41,932 nt of DNA. It comes from Muribaculaceae bacterium (GTDB lineage: Bacteria; Bacteroidota; Bacteroidia; Bacteroidales; Muribaculaceae). Under the pieces are notes generated by a model, which saw only the letters and a list, made by a program, of their open reading frames with translations, did not search any database and was not told the origin of the DNA. A program made the position numbers and the translations under genes. The stretch spans positions 1 to 41,932 of the forward strand of contig JAFTRI010000012.1 in NCBI GenBank assembly GCA_017462345.1, written 5' to 3'. Below, one piece after another: positions 4,230 to 31,964 of the stretch (the first letter of the stretch is position 1; each line of letters opens with the position of its first letter).

Positions 4230-7200
4230 ATGTCAGTTTCATTTGATAAACCCCGTGTTAACTTCGCGTCGGTAAAGAATCCTCTTCCTTACCCCGACTT
4301 TCTTGAGGTGCAATTGAAGTCGTTCAAGGACTTCCTCCAGCTTGATACTCCTCCGGAAAAAAGAAATAATGAGGGTCTTTATAAGGTTTTTGCCGAGAAC
4401 TTCCCCATTGCGGATACCCGTAACAACTTTGTGCTGGAATTTCTTGACTACTATATCGATCCTCCCCGTTACACTATTGACGAATGTCTTGAAAGAGGTC
4501 TGACTTATAGTGTACCCCTCAAAGCAAAACTTAAACTTTACTGTACCGATCCTGATCACGAAGATTTTGCGACGGAAGTTCAGGATGTGTATCTCGGCCC
4601 TATCCCATATATGACCGAGAAAGGGACGTTTGTAATCAACGGCGCCGAGCGTGTCGTTGTGTCACAGTTGCACCGTTCGCCCGGAGTGTTCTTCGGACAG
4701 AGCACACATGCCAACGGGACCAAGCTGTATTCGGCCCGTATCATCCCGTTCCGCGGTTCATGGATAGAGTTTGCCACTGACATAAACAATGTCATGTATG
4801 CTTACATCGACCGTAAGAAGAAGCTCCCTGTGACTACCCTGTTGCGTGCGATAGGTCTTGAAAGTGATAAGGACATCATCGAGATATTCGGTCTCGCTGA
4901 GGAACTCAAGGTAACCAAAACCAATCTTAAAAAGGCGGTAGGACGGAAATTCGCCGCCCGTGTCCTTAAGACATGGGTTGAAGACTTTGTCGACGAGGAT
5001 ACCGGCGAAGTTGTATCGATTGAACGCAATGATGTGGTCATCGACCGTGAAACCGTACTTGAAGAGGAACATATCCAGGATATACTCGACTCGGGTGTCA
5101 GCACAATACTCCTTCACAAGGAGGATGTCAACACGAGCGACTATTCCATAATATTCAATACACTCCAGAAGGATACAAGTAATTCGGAGAAGGAGGCTAT
5201 CCAGTATATCTACCGCCAGCTCCGCAACGCCGAGCCACCGGATGACGCCAGTGCCCGTGAGGTGATCACCAACCTGTTCTTCTCGGAGAAGCGTTATGAC
5301 CTCGGCGAGGTGGGACGCTACCGTATCAACAAGAAATTGAATCTGGGTACTTCGATGGATGTCAAGGTCCTCACCAAGGAGGATATAATTGCCATCATCA
5401 AGTATCTGATCGAACTTATCAATTCTAAAACCGATGTCGATGATATCGACCATTTGAGCAACCGTCGTGTACGTACTGTCGGCGAGCAGCTGTATAACCA
5501 GTTTGGTGTGGGACTTGCCCGCATGTCGCGTACGATACGTGAACGCATGACTGTGCGTGACAACGAGGTGTTCACCCCGATCGACCTTATCAATGCCAAG
5601 ACGATTTCGTCGGTAATCAACACGTTTTTCGGGACTAATGCGCTTTCGCAGTTCATGGATCAGACCAACCCGCTTGCCGAAATGACACACAAGCGCCGTA
5701 TGTCGGCACTCGGTCCCGGCGGTCTGTCACGTGAACGTGCCGGATTTGAGGTGCGAGACGTGCACTATACCCATTATGGACGTCTGTGTCCTATCGAGAC
5801 TCCTGAAGGACCTAACATCGGTCTTATCTCTTCACTCTGTGTGTATGCCAAAATCAATGACCTCGGCTTTATCGAGACTCCTTACCGCAAGGTGGAGGAT
5901 GCCAAGGTCAATCTCAATAATGACGAGGTGATATATCTTGCTGCCGAAATCGAGGAGGGCAAGGTGATAGCCCAGGGGAATGCTCCGCTTAATGATGACG
6001 GAACATTCATACGTGAGCGTGTAAAGGCCCGTCTTGACGCCGATTTCCCGATTGTGGCACCCGGAGAGGTGGAATTGATGGATGTGTCGCCGACACAGAT
6101 CGCATCAATTGCCGCATCGCTTATCCCGTTCCTTGAACATGATGACGCCAACCGTGCACTCATGGGTTCAAACATGATGCGTCAGGCTGTTCCGTTGTTG
6201 CGTTCGGAAGCTCCTATCGTTGGAACCGGTCTTGAAGGCCAGCTGATACGTGATTCACGTACACAGATTACCGCCGAGGGGGCTGGTGTCATCGAGTATG
6301 TGGATGCAAGGGTAATCCGCATACGTTATGACCGTACCGAGGATGAAGAGTTCGTTTCATTTGAAGATTCTGTAAAAGAATACAATATACCCAAGTTCCG
6401 TAAGACCAACCAGAGCACGACAATCGATTTGCGTCCGATATGTGAAAAGGGTCAGCGTGTGACAGCCGGAGAAATCCTTACCGAGGGTTATTCGACTGAA
6501 AACGGGGAGCTTGCTCTCGGCCGCAACCTCAAGGTGGCATTCATGCCTTGGAAGGGTTACAACTATGAGGATGCTATCGTGCTTAATGAAAAGGTTGTGC
6601 GCGAGGATATCCTGACTTCGGTTCATGTCGACGAATATTCACTCGAAGTCCGCGAGACCAAGCGTGGTATGGAAGAACTGACTTCGGACATCCCCAATGT
6701 GAGTGAGGATGCAACCAAGGATCTTGACGAGCGCGGTATCATACGTATCGGAGCGCATGTAGTTCCGGGTGATATCATGATCGGTAAGATCACTCCCAAG
6801 GGCGAGTCAGATCCCACTCCTGAAGAAAAGCTGCTCCGTGCCATCTTCGGTGACAAGGCCGGCGATGTCAAGGATGCATCATTGAAGGCGTCACCGTCGT
6901 TGAAGGGTGTGGTTATCGGAACAAACCTGTTCTCCCGCGCAGTCAAGAAAAAGAAGTCGAAGAGTGCGAACGCCCAGCTTCCGAAGCTTGACGAAGAGTA
7001 TGAAGAAAAGCTTAATGCACTTAAGGATGTTCTTGTAGGCAAGCTATTGACCCTTACTTCGGGCAAGACCTCACAGGGAGTCAAAGATTTCCTCGGCTCG
7101 GAAATAATCCCCAAGGGCGTGAAATTCTCGGCTGACACGCTCAAGGGTATCAATTACGATACCGTGAACCTGAGCAAGTGGACTGCCGATGCCCACAAGA

Positions 7201-27269: not shown

Positions 27270-28040
27270 ATGAAAATGAAAAGAATATTGTGGGCGGTTG
27301 CCTTGATGCTTGTAGCCGCTGTTCCCGAATCAAAGGCGATAGAGCTTGATACGGGAAATCCTGAAAAGCCGTTTGCCCTGGGAGTACGTGTAGGTGCGAA
27401 CTGTTCCAATCTGTCAAACAACTATACGTCATCAATGTATAACGTGACGTCGTCAGATAACCAGTGGAAGGCCGGCTTTATGGCCGGTGTGGTGTTTGAC
27501 CTTAATATCAAGAAATATCTTGTGCTGCAACCGGGTTTCTTTTTTGAGACGCGTGCCAATGACTACCGGTTGACGATGGTTGACAGGGATATGCCGTCGG
27601 TAACGGATGTCAATGGCAGTTATTCAAGTACTTATTTCAAGATCCCGTTGGTGATGTCGTTCCGTCTGCAATTTACTCCCAAGGTGGAGTGGCAGGTTGA
27701 TTTCGGCCCTTATTTCCAGTTCGGTCTCGGCGGAAGCGAGAAGTTCAATGTGTACTCCCTGTCAGCTCCCGAGAGAACGGATGATGCGGGATTCCCCTAT
27801 GTGGAGGTCAATACGGTAGACGGACGATACAAGCGTGACTATTTCGGCGGTGACGGCTTTGTTCGCGACTATGACTGGGGTTTCAAGATGGGAACCGGAA
27901 TGCTGCTGATGGAGCATTACTATGTGGGTATCCACTATGAGGCCGGTTGCCGTAATGTCATGAAGCCGGTAGAGGGTTCACGCCGTGATGTCAACGGTCA
28001 CAACAAGGCGTGGGATTTTACTGTGGGGTATGTGTTCTAA
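27270..28040 (+). CDS. Outer-membrane beta-barrel protein (PorT/OMP_b-brl type), second of pair
   Basis: This 256-residue protein has a signal peptide of about 23 residues (cleavage near ESKA). It resembles the PorT-family outer-membrane beta-barrel group (PF13568): FALGVRVGANCSNL at the start, GFMAGVVFDLNIKKYLVLQPGFFFE in the middle, and a final aromatic strand ending TVGYVF. It follows the first barrel gene by 16 bases and should share its transcript. Its stop codon lies only four bases from the stop codon of the opposing phosphatase gene. PorT-like proteins include T9SS accessory factors, but this one is too generic to assign to that role. Confidence 0.8.
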   Translation: MKMKRILWAVALMLVAAVPESKAIELDTGNPEKPFALGVRVGANCSNLSNNYTSSMYNVTSSDNQWKAGFMAGVVFDLNIKKYLVLQPGFFFETRANDYRLTMVDRDMPSVTDVNGSYSSTYFKIPLVMSFRLQFTPKVEWQVDFGPYFQFGLGGSEKFNVYSLSAPERTDDAGFPYVEVNTVDGRYKRDYFGGDGFVRDYDWGFKMGTGMLLMEHYYVGIHYEAGCRNVMKPVEGSRRDVNGHNKAWDFTVGYVF

Positions 28041-29976: not shown

Positions 29977-30007
29977 TTTGAAAATCAGAATATAGGTTGT
30001 AAATTTG
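29977..30007 (+). promoter_or_regulatory. Promoter of the cobalamin riboswitch transcript
   Basis: TTTG (29977-29980), a 19-base spacer and TAAATTTG (30000-30007) form an exact Bacteroidota promoter. Transcription should begin near 30012, right at the start of the aptamer. Confidence 0.85.
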
Positions 30008-30009
30008 TC

Positions 30010-30170
30010 GCACTAACGGGAAACACGTGAGAATCGTGTACTGTCGCGCAACTGTGAATGTTATCGTGAGTGTGCGGTAATAAAGTCAGGAACCGTGGCT
30101 GTTGAAATACAGCCGATTAGTCGCTTTCGCATGAAGAGCCTGGCTAAACCGTGGATTGGACGGAATTTTC
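30010..30170 (+). promoter_or_regulatory. Cobalamin (vitamin B12) riboswitch aptamer
   Basis: The leader contains the conserved cobalamin core. GGGAA is followed by a hairpin (ACACG, loop TGAGAAT, CGTGT), then ACTGTCGCGCAACTGTGA at about 30040-30057, the hallmark CGCAACTGT segment. The B12 box with AGTCAGGAACCG follows at about 30084-30095. A hairpin at 30097-30114 and a segment (30139-30144) able to pair with the B12 box complete the fold. Cobalamin riboswitches usually turn expression off when B12 is plentiful. The 3' boundary is approximate. Confidence 0.9.
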
Positions 30171-30185
30171 CCGATAATAGGTGAT

Positions 30186-30238
30186 TGTCAACATCCTTTG
30201 TGCAATATTACGGCTGATAGGATGGTTGGCATTTTTTT
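30186..30238 (+). terminator. Terminator (expression platform) of the cobalamin riboswitch
   Basis: An imperfect 11-bp stem (30186-30196 with 30220-30231, one bulge and one G-U) is followed by seven T (30232-30238). It lies between the aptamer and the ATG at 30264. This placement supports control by premature termination when the aptamer is bound. Confidence 0.8.
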
Positions 30239-30263
30239 ATTATTAACCAAATAACGTTTTAAA

Positions 30264-31103
30264 ATGAAAACATTCAGATTATTGGGAAATTTAGGAATTG
30301 CATCATGTCTTGTGATGTCGATGTGTGTCACGTTGTCATCTTGTTCGGATGATGAAGAGGATGAACCGCAACCGGTCGGAACAGGTCAGCAGGGTGGTTC
30401 GGGAGAGGATGACATTGTCCTTGATGTCACTTCTGCCGGTTTAAACTACGGTGAAAACGGAGCATGGAGCTCGGTCTATGATACAGAAACGGGTAATTTT
30501 AACGTGCAGGATTTCAGTTTTTCTCATTTGGCGACTGCAAGTGAATGGGACGGATATGTCTATTATGCCTGGAAAGGATTCTGCCCGACGGTGTCGGTGG
30601 ATAATGCCGACCATCCGGATGGCTATTGGACCGACTACCAGTGGGGGGCAATCACCGGCGGTGGTTATGACGGTGCCGGAAAAGCGTATGTACTTGGCAT
30701 GTGGGATGTTTATGAGAGTCTTGAAACTCTTCCCGATGTCCCGTCTTGCGCAATCAGCTATAAGTCAGGTGCGGTATTTGATCCGGAGGAAATATATGTG
30801 ACTAATAGCGCATGGGGGTATTATGGCATGAAAAACGGTTCGGCCTATAATAAGGCTTTCGGTGAAGGTGACTGGTGCAAGCTCTATATCAGAGGCTCCA
30901 AGGATGGAGTGATAACCGGAACGGTTGAGGTGAATCTTGCACAAGGGACGGACATATTGAACACATGGAAGCGTGTCGATCTTGAAGCATTGGGAGATGT
31001 GGATGTGATTTATTTCCAGATGGCATCGTCCGATACAGGACAGTGGGGCATGAATAATCCTGCCTACTTCTGTCTCGATCGCCTTGTCATTGATGGGGAA
31101 TAA
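30264..31103 (+). CDS. Surface lipoprotein, DUF4465 type, probable BtuH-like B12-binding protein
   Basis: This 279-residue lipoprotein has a lipobox L24-S-S-C27. The acidic run directly after the cysteine (SDDEEDE) matches the Bacteroidota lipoprotein export signal, so surface display is expected. Residues about 50-279 fit DUF4465 (PF14717): GAWSSVYD, WGAITGGGYDG, FDPEEIYVTNSAWGYYGM and FGEGDWCKLYIRG are typical. I recall that Bacteroides BtuH vitamin B12-binding surface lipoproteins are of this domain type; I am moderately sure. The cobalamin riboswitch just upstream independently points to a B12 role. No btuB, btuG or corrinoid transport gene lies beside it in this window. Confidence 0.8.
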   Translation: MKTFRLLGNLGIASCLVMSMCVTLSSCSDDEEDEPQPVGTGQQGGSGEDDIVLDVTSAGLNYGENGAWSSVYDTETGNFNVQDFSFSHLATASEWDGYVYYAWKGFCPTVSVDNADHPDGYWTDYQWGAITGGGYDGAGKAYVLGMWDVYESLETLPDVPSCAISYKSGAVFDPEEIYVTNSAWGYYGMKNGSAYNKAFGEGDWCKLYIRGSKDGVITGTVEVNLAQGTDILNTWKRVDLEALGDVDVIYFQMASSDTGQWGMNNPAYFCLDRLVIDGE

Positions 31104-31124: not shown

Positions 31125-31308
31125 GAGGATGCCTCAAAACTCAATTTCTGAGAATATGGACTCATAATTTGAAATTTGAGAATCCTAAAAGATAAAATAA
31201 AGGGTGGTCGTATCAAGCTCTGTGTTGAGTAGGATACGACCCTTTTAATGCTTATTAGTTATAATCTATTACTTTTTTGAGTGACCCTTTTAGTTTTTAG
31301 ACACCCTC
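31125..31308. mobile_element. 184-bp element with imperfect terminal inverted repeats (MITE-like or insertion-sequence remnant)
   Basis: The left end (31125-31144, GAGGATGCCTCAAAACT...) and the reverse complement of the right end (31289-31308, GAGGGTGTCTAAAAACT...) agree at 16 of 20 positions. Inside lies a hairpin with a perfect GGTCGTATC/GATACGACC stem (about 31206-31247) flanked by AAAGGG and CCCTTT. No coding frame and no clear target-site duplication are seen. It fills most of the 296-base gap before the toxin-antitoxin locus. The shape suggests a non-autonomous element or two fused ends of a lost insertion sequence. Confidence 0.5.
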
Positions 31309-31399: not shown

Positions 31400-31645
31400 A
31401 TGGCTATGGTAATAGAAAGAAAACAAACTGCTTTTAGACTAAGTACAAGTTTACTAAATAAATTAAGAGAAGCCGCGGATAGAGAAAATCGCAGTCTGAA
31501 CAACTATGTCGAAAGTGTTTTGATGGATGCTGTATCCAGCAATCCAAACAAATTGACTTTGGCGGCAATGAAAGAAGCTCGTGAAAATCGCGACTTGGAA
31601 ACTTTAGATGTAAACAACCTCAAATCGGTAATTGCGTCATTATAG
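31400..31645 (+). CDS. Ribbon-helix-helix antitoxin
   Basis: This 81-residue protein has an N-terminal ribbon-helix-helix fold at about residues 5-48 (RKQTAFRLSTSLLNKLREAADRENRSL with NNYVESVL after it), the DNA-binding part of many type II antitoxins. The C-terminal tail (about 50-81) would wrap the toxin. The stop codon lies five bases before the ATG of the toxin remnant, and a strong AGGAG sequence overlaps it, a typical toxin-antitoxin layout. The reading frame is intact although its partner is broken. The region is AT-rich compared with its neighbours, which suggests acquisition by transfer. Confidence 0.82.
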   Translation: MAMVIERKQTAFRLSTSLLNKLREAADRENRSLNNYVESVLMDAVSSNPNKLTLAAMKEARENRDLETLDVNNLKSVIASL

Positions 31646-31649
31646 GAGT

Positions 31650-31920
31650 ATGTACACCCTTAAAATGTCCGGGCAGTTTAAGAAAGACCTTAAGCGCATT
31701 CAAAATAAACCGAAGAAAATTGAACATCTTGAAGTGGTACTCTCTTTCCTGCAAGAAACCGGTGTAGTCCCTGATATTTATAGCCCTCATAAATTAACAG
31801 GTAATGATGATGGATTTATGGAATGTCATGTGAAAATGACTTTCTGTTAGTTTGGCTCGACGAGGAAGAAAATGTTATCAAACTCGTTTGGGTAGCCATT
31901 CCGAATTGTTCGGGAAATAA
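31650..31920 (+). pseudogene. YafQ/RelE-family mRNA interferase toxin, disrupted by two frameshifts
   Basis: The frame from ATG 31650 (AGGAG at 31644-31648) is open to a stop at 31848-31850, giving a 66-residue protein that ends too early. Adding one A in the AAAA at 31833-31836 restores DFLLVWLDEEENVIKLVW. Adding one G near 31895 restores V-G-H-S-E-L-F-G-K and a stop at 31918-31920. The repaired protein would be about 90 residues and keep the YafQ catalytic histidines and aspartate (HKL, ECHV-K-x-D, and H in GHSELF). The last of these is lost in the real frame, so the toxin should be inactive. Sequencing error at two homopolymer-like sites is an alternative. Confidence 0.78.
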
Positions 31921-31964
31921 TAATTGGTATATTTTGACCAATAAGCCTGGTTGTGTAATATAGA

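What the first reader, a model, noticed from the sequence alone, without database searches (positions are those of the whole stretch)
29977..31103. Stand-alone cobalamin riboswitch controlling one BtuH-like surface lipoprotein
A consensus promoter, cobalamin aptamer and terminator precede a single gene for a DUF4465 lipoprotein with a surface-export signal (CSDDEEDE). In Bacteroides, B12 capture lipoproteins usually sit in loci with the transporter btuB. Here the gene stands alone, next to a GNAT gene and a broken toxin-antitoxin. It may be a satellite B12 scavenger that feeds a transporter encoded elsewhere, or may bind a different corrinoid.
Basis: partly seen in the sequence, partly recalled or inferred. 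Interest (0 to 1): 0.7.

Follow-up and report, generated by a model that had tools for sequence, protein, structure and literature searches.

The report
Stand-alone B12-controlled B12-scavenger lipoprotein gene
A gut bacterium of the Muribaculaceae carries, away from its vitamin B12 transporter genes, a single gene for a probable B12-grabbing surface protein of the known BtuJ (DUF4465) family, preceded by an unusually short B12-sensing RNA switch that begins right at the promoter.

Summary
In detail: promoter 29977-30007, cobalamin aptamer, terminator 30186-30238 and a one-gene DUF4465 lipoprotein unit. Rfam scores the aptamer 31.4 bits against a cut-off of 31.5, so a default scan misses it. 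Nineteen sequences of the genus show strong compensatory changes, and 9 of 9 DUF4465 genes found in 12 genus genomes have a cobalamin hit just upstream.

The name needs correcting: DUF4465 proteins are BtuJ, not BtuH. The genome's BtuH homologue lies in a btuB-btuH-btuG operon on another contig, behind a sister riboswitch. A btuFCD-like operon and B12-dependent enzymes are present; CobS was not found (84% complete MAG). 'Satellite scavenger for a transporter encoded elsewhere' is well supported; 'different corrinoid' is not.

Beyond the finding: the aptamer is a shortened form without room for P1/P2 (GGGAA 10-14 nt after the promoter box in 17 of 20 genus copies). Two output modes occur: btuJ copies carry terminators (9 of 9), while three btuB copies, this genome's included, have the start codon in the P13 loop and no terminator found. 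Stand-alone btuJ is common in the family; a riboswitch on it is not. New variant of a known kind; moderate interest.

The parts
29977..30007 (+). promoter: TTTG (29977-29980), 19 nt, TAAATTTG (30000-30007)
   Evidence: sequence; a TAnnTTTG box within 70 nt before the core in 20 of 20 short-type leaders of the genus; consensus recalled
30016..30096 (+). minimal cobalamin aptamer P3-P6 with B12 box (AAGTCAGGAACC 30083-30094); no room for P1/P2
   Evidence: RF00174 31.4 bits; genus model R1 145 bits, but the sequence was in its training set; covariation
30097..30114 (+). hairpin after P3 (GGCTGT...ACAGCC)
   Evidence: compensatory changes; 75% of cells paired, partly because rows are misaligned there
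30118..30146 (+). P13-like stem-loop; loop CGCATG holds an ATG (30131) that opens a 17-codon frame ending at 30184
   Evidence: outer stem kept in 19 of 19 sequences; the ATG is in 3 of 9 btuJ leaders only
30186..30238 (+). intrinsic terminator (expression platform)
   Evidence: -15.2 kcal/mol stem then T7; hairpins in 9 of 9 btuJ leaders; shuffle control
30264..31103 (+). btuJ-like gene: DUF4465 lipoprotein, 279 aa
   Evidence: PF14717 129.4 bits; profile of 13 homologues matches BtuJ1 structure 9FCT, E 8.1e-36
31200..31246 (+). strong terminator-like hairpin after the gene, 3' arm ending in TTTT
   Evidence: -24.4 kcal/mol, z -5.8

Best explanation
This is a one-gene B12-starvation unit. Transcription starts a few bases upstream of the aptamer core. 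When the cell has enough cobalamin, the leader binds it and the terminator at 30186-30238 stops transcription; when cobalamin is scarce, the gene is read. The product is a lipoprotein of the BtuJ (DUF4465) family, carried on the cell surface and perhaps on outer-membrane vesicles, that binds B12 tightly and hands it to the BtuB-BtuG-BtuH system encoded on another contig. Shown here: sequence parts, family membership, covariation, terminator hairpins in 9 of 9 genus btuJ leaders, partner genes in the genome. Inferred: ligand binding, direction of control, start site, surface or vesicle location, hand-over.
For: Aptamer. A cobalamin hit lies 383-451 nt before the DUF4465 match on the same strand in 9 of the 9 genus genomes that have one (12 searched). 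Terminators. BtuJ family; Asn241 and Tyr245 of BtuJ1 are N264 and Y268 here (residues from PMC12751083). Partners: btuB (BtuB1 chain of 8BLW, E 3.2e-138), btuG, BtuH homologue, Peripla_BP_2-FecCD-ABC operon. Need for B12: methylmalonyl-CoA mutase and two more B12-binding-domain proteins, one in a 1198-aa frame as expected for MetH (MetH size recalled); no CobS. Published: eight distantly related DUF4465 proteins bind B12 (PMC13398666, parts 1-3 of 5 read); B. theta BtuJ proteins bind tightly and BtuJ-bearing vesicles deliver B12, and reporters of B. theta cobamide operons shut off with B12 and pseudo-B12 (PMC12751083, sections 5, 7, 10 and passages read).
Against: No binding, expression or localisation data for this organism. 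The Rfam score is just under the cut-off. Two of the four residues that hydrogen-bond cobalamin in BtuJ1/J2 differ here (Tyr146 to W184, Thr242 to N265). The antiterminator that I tested failed, so how ligand binding reaches the terminator is open. Structure prediction never ran (nine tries). The GNAT gene upstream is on the same strand and the scan shows no terminator between, so read-through is possible. The genome is 84% complete, so missing genes (CobS, further btu genes) may be artefacts.
Confidence: 0.86

Rival explanations
1. The protein serves a cobamide or corrinoid other than B12 (for example pseudo-B12 or cobinamide), and that is why it has its own switch.
For: W184 and N265 replace Tyr146 and Thr242 of BtuJ1; two relatives even have Phe for the key HI-loop Tyr.
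Against: Tyr146 and Tyr245 of BtuJ1 touch corrin side chains, and the lower ligand points outward in BtuJ1/J2 (PMC12751083, section 7). The riboswitch core is nearly the same as on this genome's btuB, so both would be expected to answer to the same ligand. Not tested: the residue matching BtuJ1 Trp78, which touches the lower ligand.
Confidence: 0.08
2. Control runs through translation of the leader frame 30131-30184, which starts in the P13 loop and ends 1 nt before the terminator stem: B12 hides the loop ATG, and ribosome position sets termination.
For: ATG in the P13 loop and its stop next to the terminator. In three sister leaders the same loop ATG is the btuB start.
Against: The leader frame is not kept: ATG in the P13 loop of 3 of 9 btuJ leaders, TTG in 2, neither in 4, while terminator hairpins are in 9 of 9.
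Confidence: 0.1
3. The RNA is a decayed cobalamin riboswitch and the gene is now constitutive, as riboswitch-less stand-alone copies in other genera may be.
For: Sub-threshold Rfam score; of 21 sampled loci in other genera without transporter homologues nearby, 15 have no RF00174 hit at the gathering score.
Against: Core motifs are invariant and stems covary in 19 sequences; terminator hairpins are kept with differing sequences.
Confidence: 0.06

Closest known systems
BtuJ1 / BtuJ2 of Bacteroides thetaiotaomicron (DUF4465, IPR027828; PDB 9FCT, 9I2L)
   Same: DUF4465 lipoprotein, HI loop with Asn and Tyr, under cobalamin riboswitch control
   Different: B. theta copies sit in B12 transport operons; this one is a single-gene unit on another contig than btuB; HI loop MNNPAY instead of MNTPSY, Trp in place of Tyr146
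Cobalamin riboswitch RF00174 (Bacteroidales forms)
   Same: GGGAA, L5 CTGTCGCGCAACTG, B12 box, P13 loop with CTTTCGC
   Different: core begins 10 nt after the promoter box (10-14 nt in 17 of 20 genus copies) against 48-72 nt in 6 order-level relatives where a box was found (two of these were counted to an earlier GGAA and are 8-10 nt longer); no room for P1/P2
Class II cobalamin riboswitches (env8, M. tuberculosis ppe2)
   Same: small forms around the P3-P6 junction
   Different: best Rfam match here is RF00174; two lower-scoring matches of the same clan were left out without names. env8 keeps a P1 (recalled)
BtuH1/BtuH2
   Same: accessory B12-binding surface lipoproteins of Bacteroidetes
   Different: different domain; this genome's BtuH homologue is in the btuB operon

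Membership tests
BtuJ / DUF4465 | DUF4465 domain above the curated cut-off | tested here: met
   129.4 bits against 25
BtuJ / DUF4465 | conserved HI-loop motif with B12-binding Tyr | tested here: met
   MNNPAYF, Y268 aligned with Tyr245 of BtuJ1
BtuJ / DUF4465 | DE-loop Tyr146 and HI-loop Thr242 (shared contacts, not strictly defining) | tested here: not met
   W184 and N265; the published B12 binders also differ in many contact residues (PMC13398666)
BtuJ / DUF4465 | augmented beta-jellyroll fold | not tested
   structure machine busy at all nine tries; profile match to 9FCT covers chain residues 5-253 of 256
BtuJ / DUF4465 | binds B12 | not testable with these tools
   needs purified protein
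BtuH | sequence match to BtuH2 (7BIZ) | tested here: not met
   not among the matches; met by the protein at L004:8074-9000
Cobalamin riboswitch RF00174 | covariance score at or above gathering | tested here: not met
   31.4 against 31.5; of the 9 genus btuJ leaders 6 pass the cut-off and 3 do not
Cobalamin riboswitch RF00174 | P3-P6 junction, GGGAA, B12 box | tested here: met
Cobalamin riboswitch RF00174 | P1 (and P2) closing the aptamer | tested here: not met
   10 nt between promoter box and core; the strand after P3 folds into its own hairpin. The start site itself is inferred, not mapped
Cobalamin riboswitch RF00174 | L5-L13 kissing | tested here: inconclusive
   L5 GCG and L13 CGC could form 3 G-C pairs but are invariant, so covariation cannot show it

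The most novel reading that the evidence does not exclude
In this Muribaculaceae genus the cobalamin riboswitch has shrunk to the P3-P6 core plus P13, placed directly behind the promoter so that the RNA starts within a few bases of P3. The same mini-aptamer drives two kinds of output in one genome: a terminator in front of a wandering one-gene btuJ unit, and a btuB start codon buried in the P13 loop. Outside the genus the strong hits to the mini-aptamer (3 of 3) all lie in front of btuJ, so it may have spread with btuJ and then been taken over by btuB.
Probability: 0.45. Interest if true: 0.58.

Novelty: new variant of a known kind. Interest (0 to 1): 0.42.

Why it matters
It suggests that a cobalamin riboswitch can do without P1/P2, in a form that standard annotation scores near or below its cut-off (4 of 28 genus hits fall under it). 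PMC12751083 reports a B. theta operon that is B12-regulated without a recognised riboswitch and names sequence divergence as one possible reason; shortened forms like this are a concrete thing to look for. PMC10404256 (passages seen) asks whether B12-binding lipoproteins can serve transporters of another locus; a btuJ unit on a different contig from btuB is a natural test.

Tried and rejected
Antiterminator between the hairpin after P3 and the terminator 5' arm: convincing by eye in some species, but matched pairs were no better than swapped ones (11 leaders, permutation 0.44; four one-per-group sets 0.18-0.67). Rejected. L5-L13 kissing: cannot be tested by covariation here. Leader reading frame as a general control element: not conserved. 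BtuH identity: rejected. Terminators of two btuB leaders (G005, G001): the hairpins found are no better than shuffles, so not claimed. Structure prediction: nine tries, machine busy each time. Literature: one paper holds the words Muribaculaceae, cobalamin and riboswitch (listing only). In the listings I saw no title or abstract start that describes a P1-less form; four papers from those listings were opened for this question, as found passages only (PMC9600662, PMC11260477, PMC2258182, PMC2211319). The library holds open-licence papers only, so this is no proof of absence from print.

Full report
WHAT IS THERE. The window is contig C32 of a 2.09-Mb, 84%-complete genome; the nearest named relatives of the protein are in Muribaculaceae MAGs from goat and sheep rectum (55% and 53% identity). 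A promoter (TTTG 29977-29980, 19 nt, TAAATTTG 30000-30007), a cobalamin aptamer, a terminator (30186-30238) and a 279-aa DUF4465 lipoprotein gene (30264-31103) follow one another. A strong hairpin follows the gene (31200-31246). The unit looks one gene long, although read-through from the GNAT gene upstream is not excluded.

IS THE RIBOSWITCH REAL? A default Rfam scan of the window lists two tRNAs only. With an E-value threshold RF00174 appears at 31.4 bits, 0.1 under its cut-off. I therefore tested it by comparison. In the genus, 9 of 12 genomes have a DUF4465 gene, and in 9 of these 9 a cobalamin hit lies 383-451 nt before the DUF4465 domain match on the same strand (3 of the 9 are under the cut-off). 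Of the 28 cobalamin hits in the genus, 20 are of a short form and 8 of a long form (spans of 204-207 nt, 99.9-116.3 bits). I aligned 19 of the 20 short ones (the twentieth repeats another row). A 32-pair structure (P3, P4, P6, the next hairpin, P13) has 92.7% of cells paired and 14 pairs with changes on both sides; 0 of 500 shuffles reach either; sliding one strand by 1-3 bases gives 28-44% paired. I wrote the structure by eye from these sequences, so the slid control favours it, and the shuffles ignore relatedness; the double changes in P4 (A-U, G-C, C-G) and P6 are the strongest part. Against: two pairs at the P3 end are broken in 6 and 2 of 19 sequences, P6 is 82.5% paired, and the hairpin after P3 is misaligned in some rows (75.4% paired).

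A SHORTENED APTAMER. Between the promoter box and GGGAA there are 10-14 nt in 17 of 20 short leaders and 22-23 nt in the other 3. With the start site expected a few bases after the box (recalled for Bacteroides), the RNA begins within a few bases of P3; P1 and P2 have no room, and the strand after P3 folds on itself. Of 11 order-level loci fetched with the genus model, 8 could be read; they share the L5 and L13 motifs, and the 6 with a box have 48-72 nt there (two counted to an earlier GGAA, so 8-10 nt more). Among 149 family genomes 52 match the genus model at E 0.001, mostly weakly; outside the genus only three matches exceed 70 bits (G025 105.1, G125 96.4, G015 70.5), each directly before a DUF4465 gene; in G015 the 5' part is longer. 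Among 295 order-level genomes (an even sample) the best match outside the own genome is 57.2 bits.

TWO OUTPUT MODES. Of 19 short leaders, 16 gave a hairpin before a T run: 9 of 9 btuJ and 7 of 10 btuB leaders. Against 300 dinucleotide shuffles each, 14 of the 16 stand out (z -2.5 to -5.7) and two btuB ones (G005, G001) do not (z 0.7 and 0.2). The three without a hairpin are the btuB leaders of G000, G002 and G010. In these the P13 loop reads CGCATGAAAAGT and that ATG opens the BtuB signal peptide (MKSKIIRILSLS... in this genome); they are also the three with 22-23 nt before the core. In G025 and G125 the btuJ frame opens at the loop ATG too, with a second Met ten codons on as an alternative start. 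One aptamer form thus appears to serve termination on btuJ and start-codon burial on btuB in the same genome. This is inference from sequence.

THE PROTEIN. It belongs to DUF4465, for which the published name is BtuJ (PMC12751083: sections 5, 7, 10 and passages read; PMC13398666: parts 1-3 of 5 read). BtuH (PMC8941943: abstract, outline and passages seen) is another domain, solved as 7BIZ. The profile of 13 homologues matches BtuJ1 9FCT at E 8.1e-36 and D5EK51 9HMU at 5.3e-35. Of the four residues that hydrogen-bond cobalamin in both BtuJ1 and BtuJ2, Asn241 and Tyr245 are kept (N264, Y268); Tyr146 is W184 and Thr242 is N265.

ITS PARTNERS. A second cobalamin riboswitch in the genome precedes btuB, a BtuH homologue and btuG on contig C20. 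I did not search the genome for further BtuB copies. A binding-protein, FecCD-permease and ATPase operon lies on C26; the genome-wide RF00174 search shows no hit there. Methylmalonyl-CoA mutase is present, plus two further B12-binding-domain proteins. CobS was not found, with the incompleteness of the genome in mind. All this fits a B12 scavenger that feeds a transporter encoded elsewhere.

HOW UNUSUAL IS 'ALONE'? Within the genus the btuJ unit sits in several settings: beside obgE and/or rpoN (Pfam-tested in G007; by eye in G002, G009, G010), about 5-7 kb from the btuB riboswitch (G004, G005, G006), and elsewhere in G000 and G001. From 149 family genomes (95 with DUF4465) I fetched 28 loci from 27 other genera (one genus twice), choosing one per genus and preferring short reading frames. 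Seven have a btuB, btuG or BtuH homologue in the stretch; 21 do not (stretches 3.2-12.6 kb, several cut by contig ends). Of those 21, 6 have an RF00174 hit at the gathering score before the gene and 15 have none (L144, one of the seven, was not scanned). In several of the 15 the gene follows a glutamate-racemase-like gene (Pfam Asp_Glu_race in 4 of 4 tested). So stand-alone btuJ is ordinary in this family; stand-alone btuJ under its own riboswitch is found in this genus and a few others. PMC13398666 reports 40-55% co-location with TonB-receptor domains in its larger DUF4465 cluster, which agrees.

VERDICT. Observation confirmed, name corrected from BtuH to BtuJ, satellite reading supported, different-corrinoid reading unsupported. 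The gene is a new member of a known family; the leader is a shortened variant of a known riboswitch.

Noticed in passing
L004 (G000:C20:60000-79500) 5900-6070: The genome's btuB leader has the btuB start codon in the P13 loop of a short cobalamin riboswitch and no terminator found; same in G002 and G010.
   Followed up: partly
L043 and L045 (G004, G005), btuJ genes: The HI-loop Tyr, reported as kept in 97% of homologues (PMC13398666), is Phe in these two relatives (MNNPAFF).
   Followed up: no
window 30131-30184: A 17-codon reading frame starts in the P13 loop and stops 1 nt before the terminator stem.
   Followed up: partly
L124, L132, L134, L135, L136, L141: In other Muribaculaceae genera btuJ directly follows a glutamate-racemase-like gene and lacks a recognised riboswitch (racemase domain confirmed in 4 of 4 tested; L132 and L134 by eye).
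   Followed up: partly
window 31400-31964: A small ribbon-helix-helix-like protein (weak HicB/FitA matches below cut-offs) is followed by a YafQ/RelE-like reading frame (label recalled) that stops after 66 codons.
   Followed up: no
L059, L060, L061, L063, L064, L065 and others: Several Muribaculaceae carry a DUF4465 domain inside open frames of about 2050-2350 aa.
   Followed up: no
window 27270-28040: Outer-membrane beta-barrel protein with a sub-threshold match to the PorT/SprT model of type IX secretion (42.9 against 125 bits).
   Followed up: no
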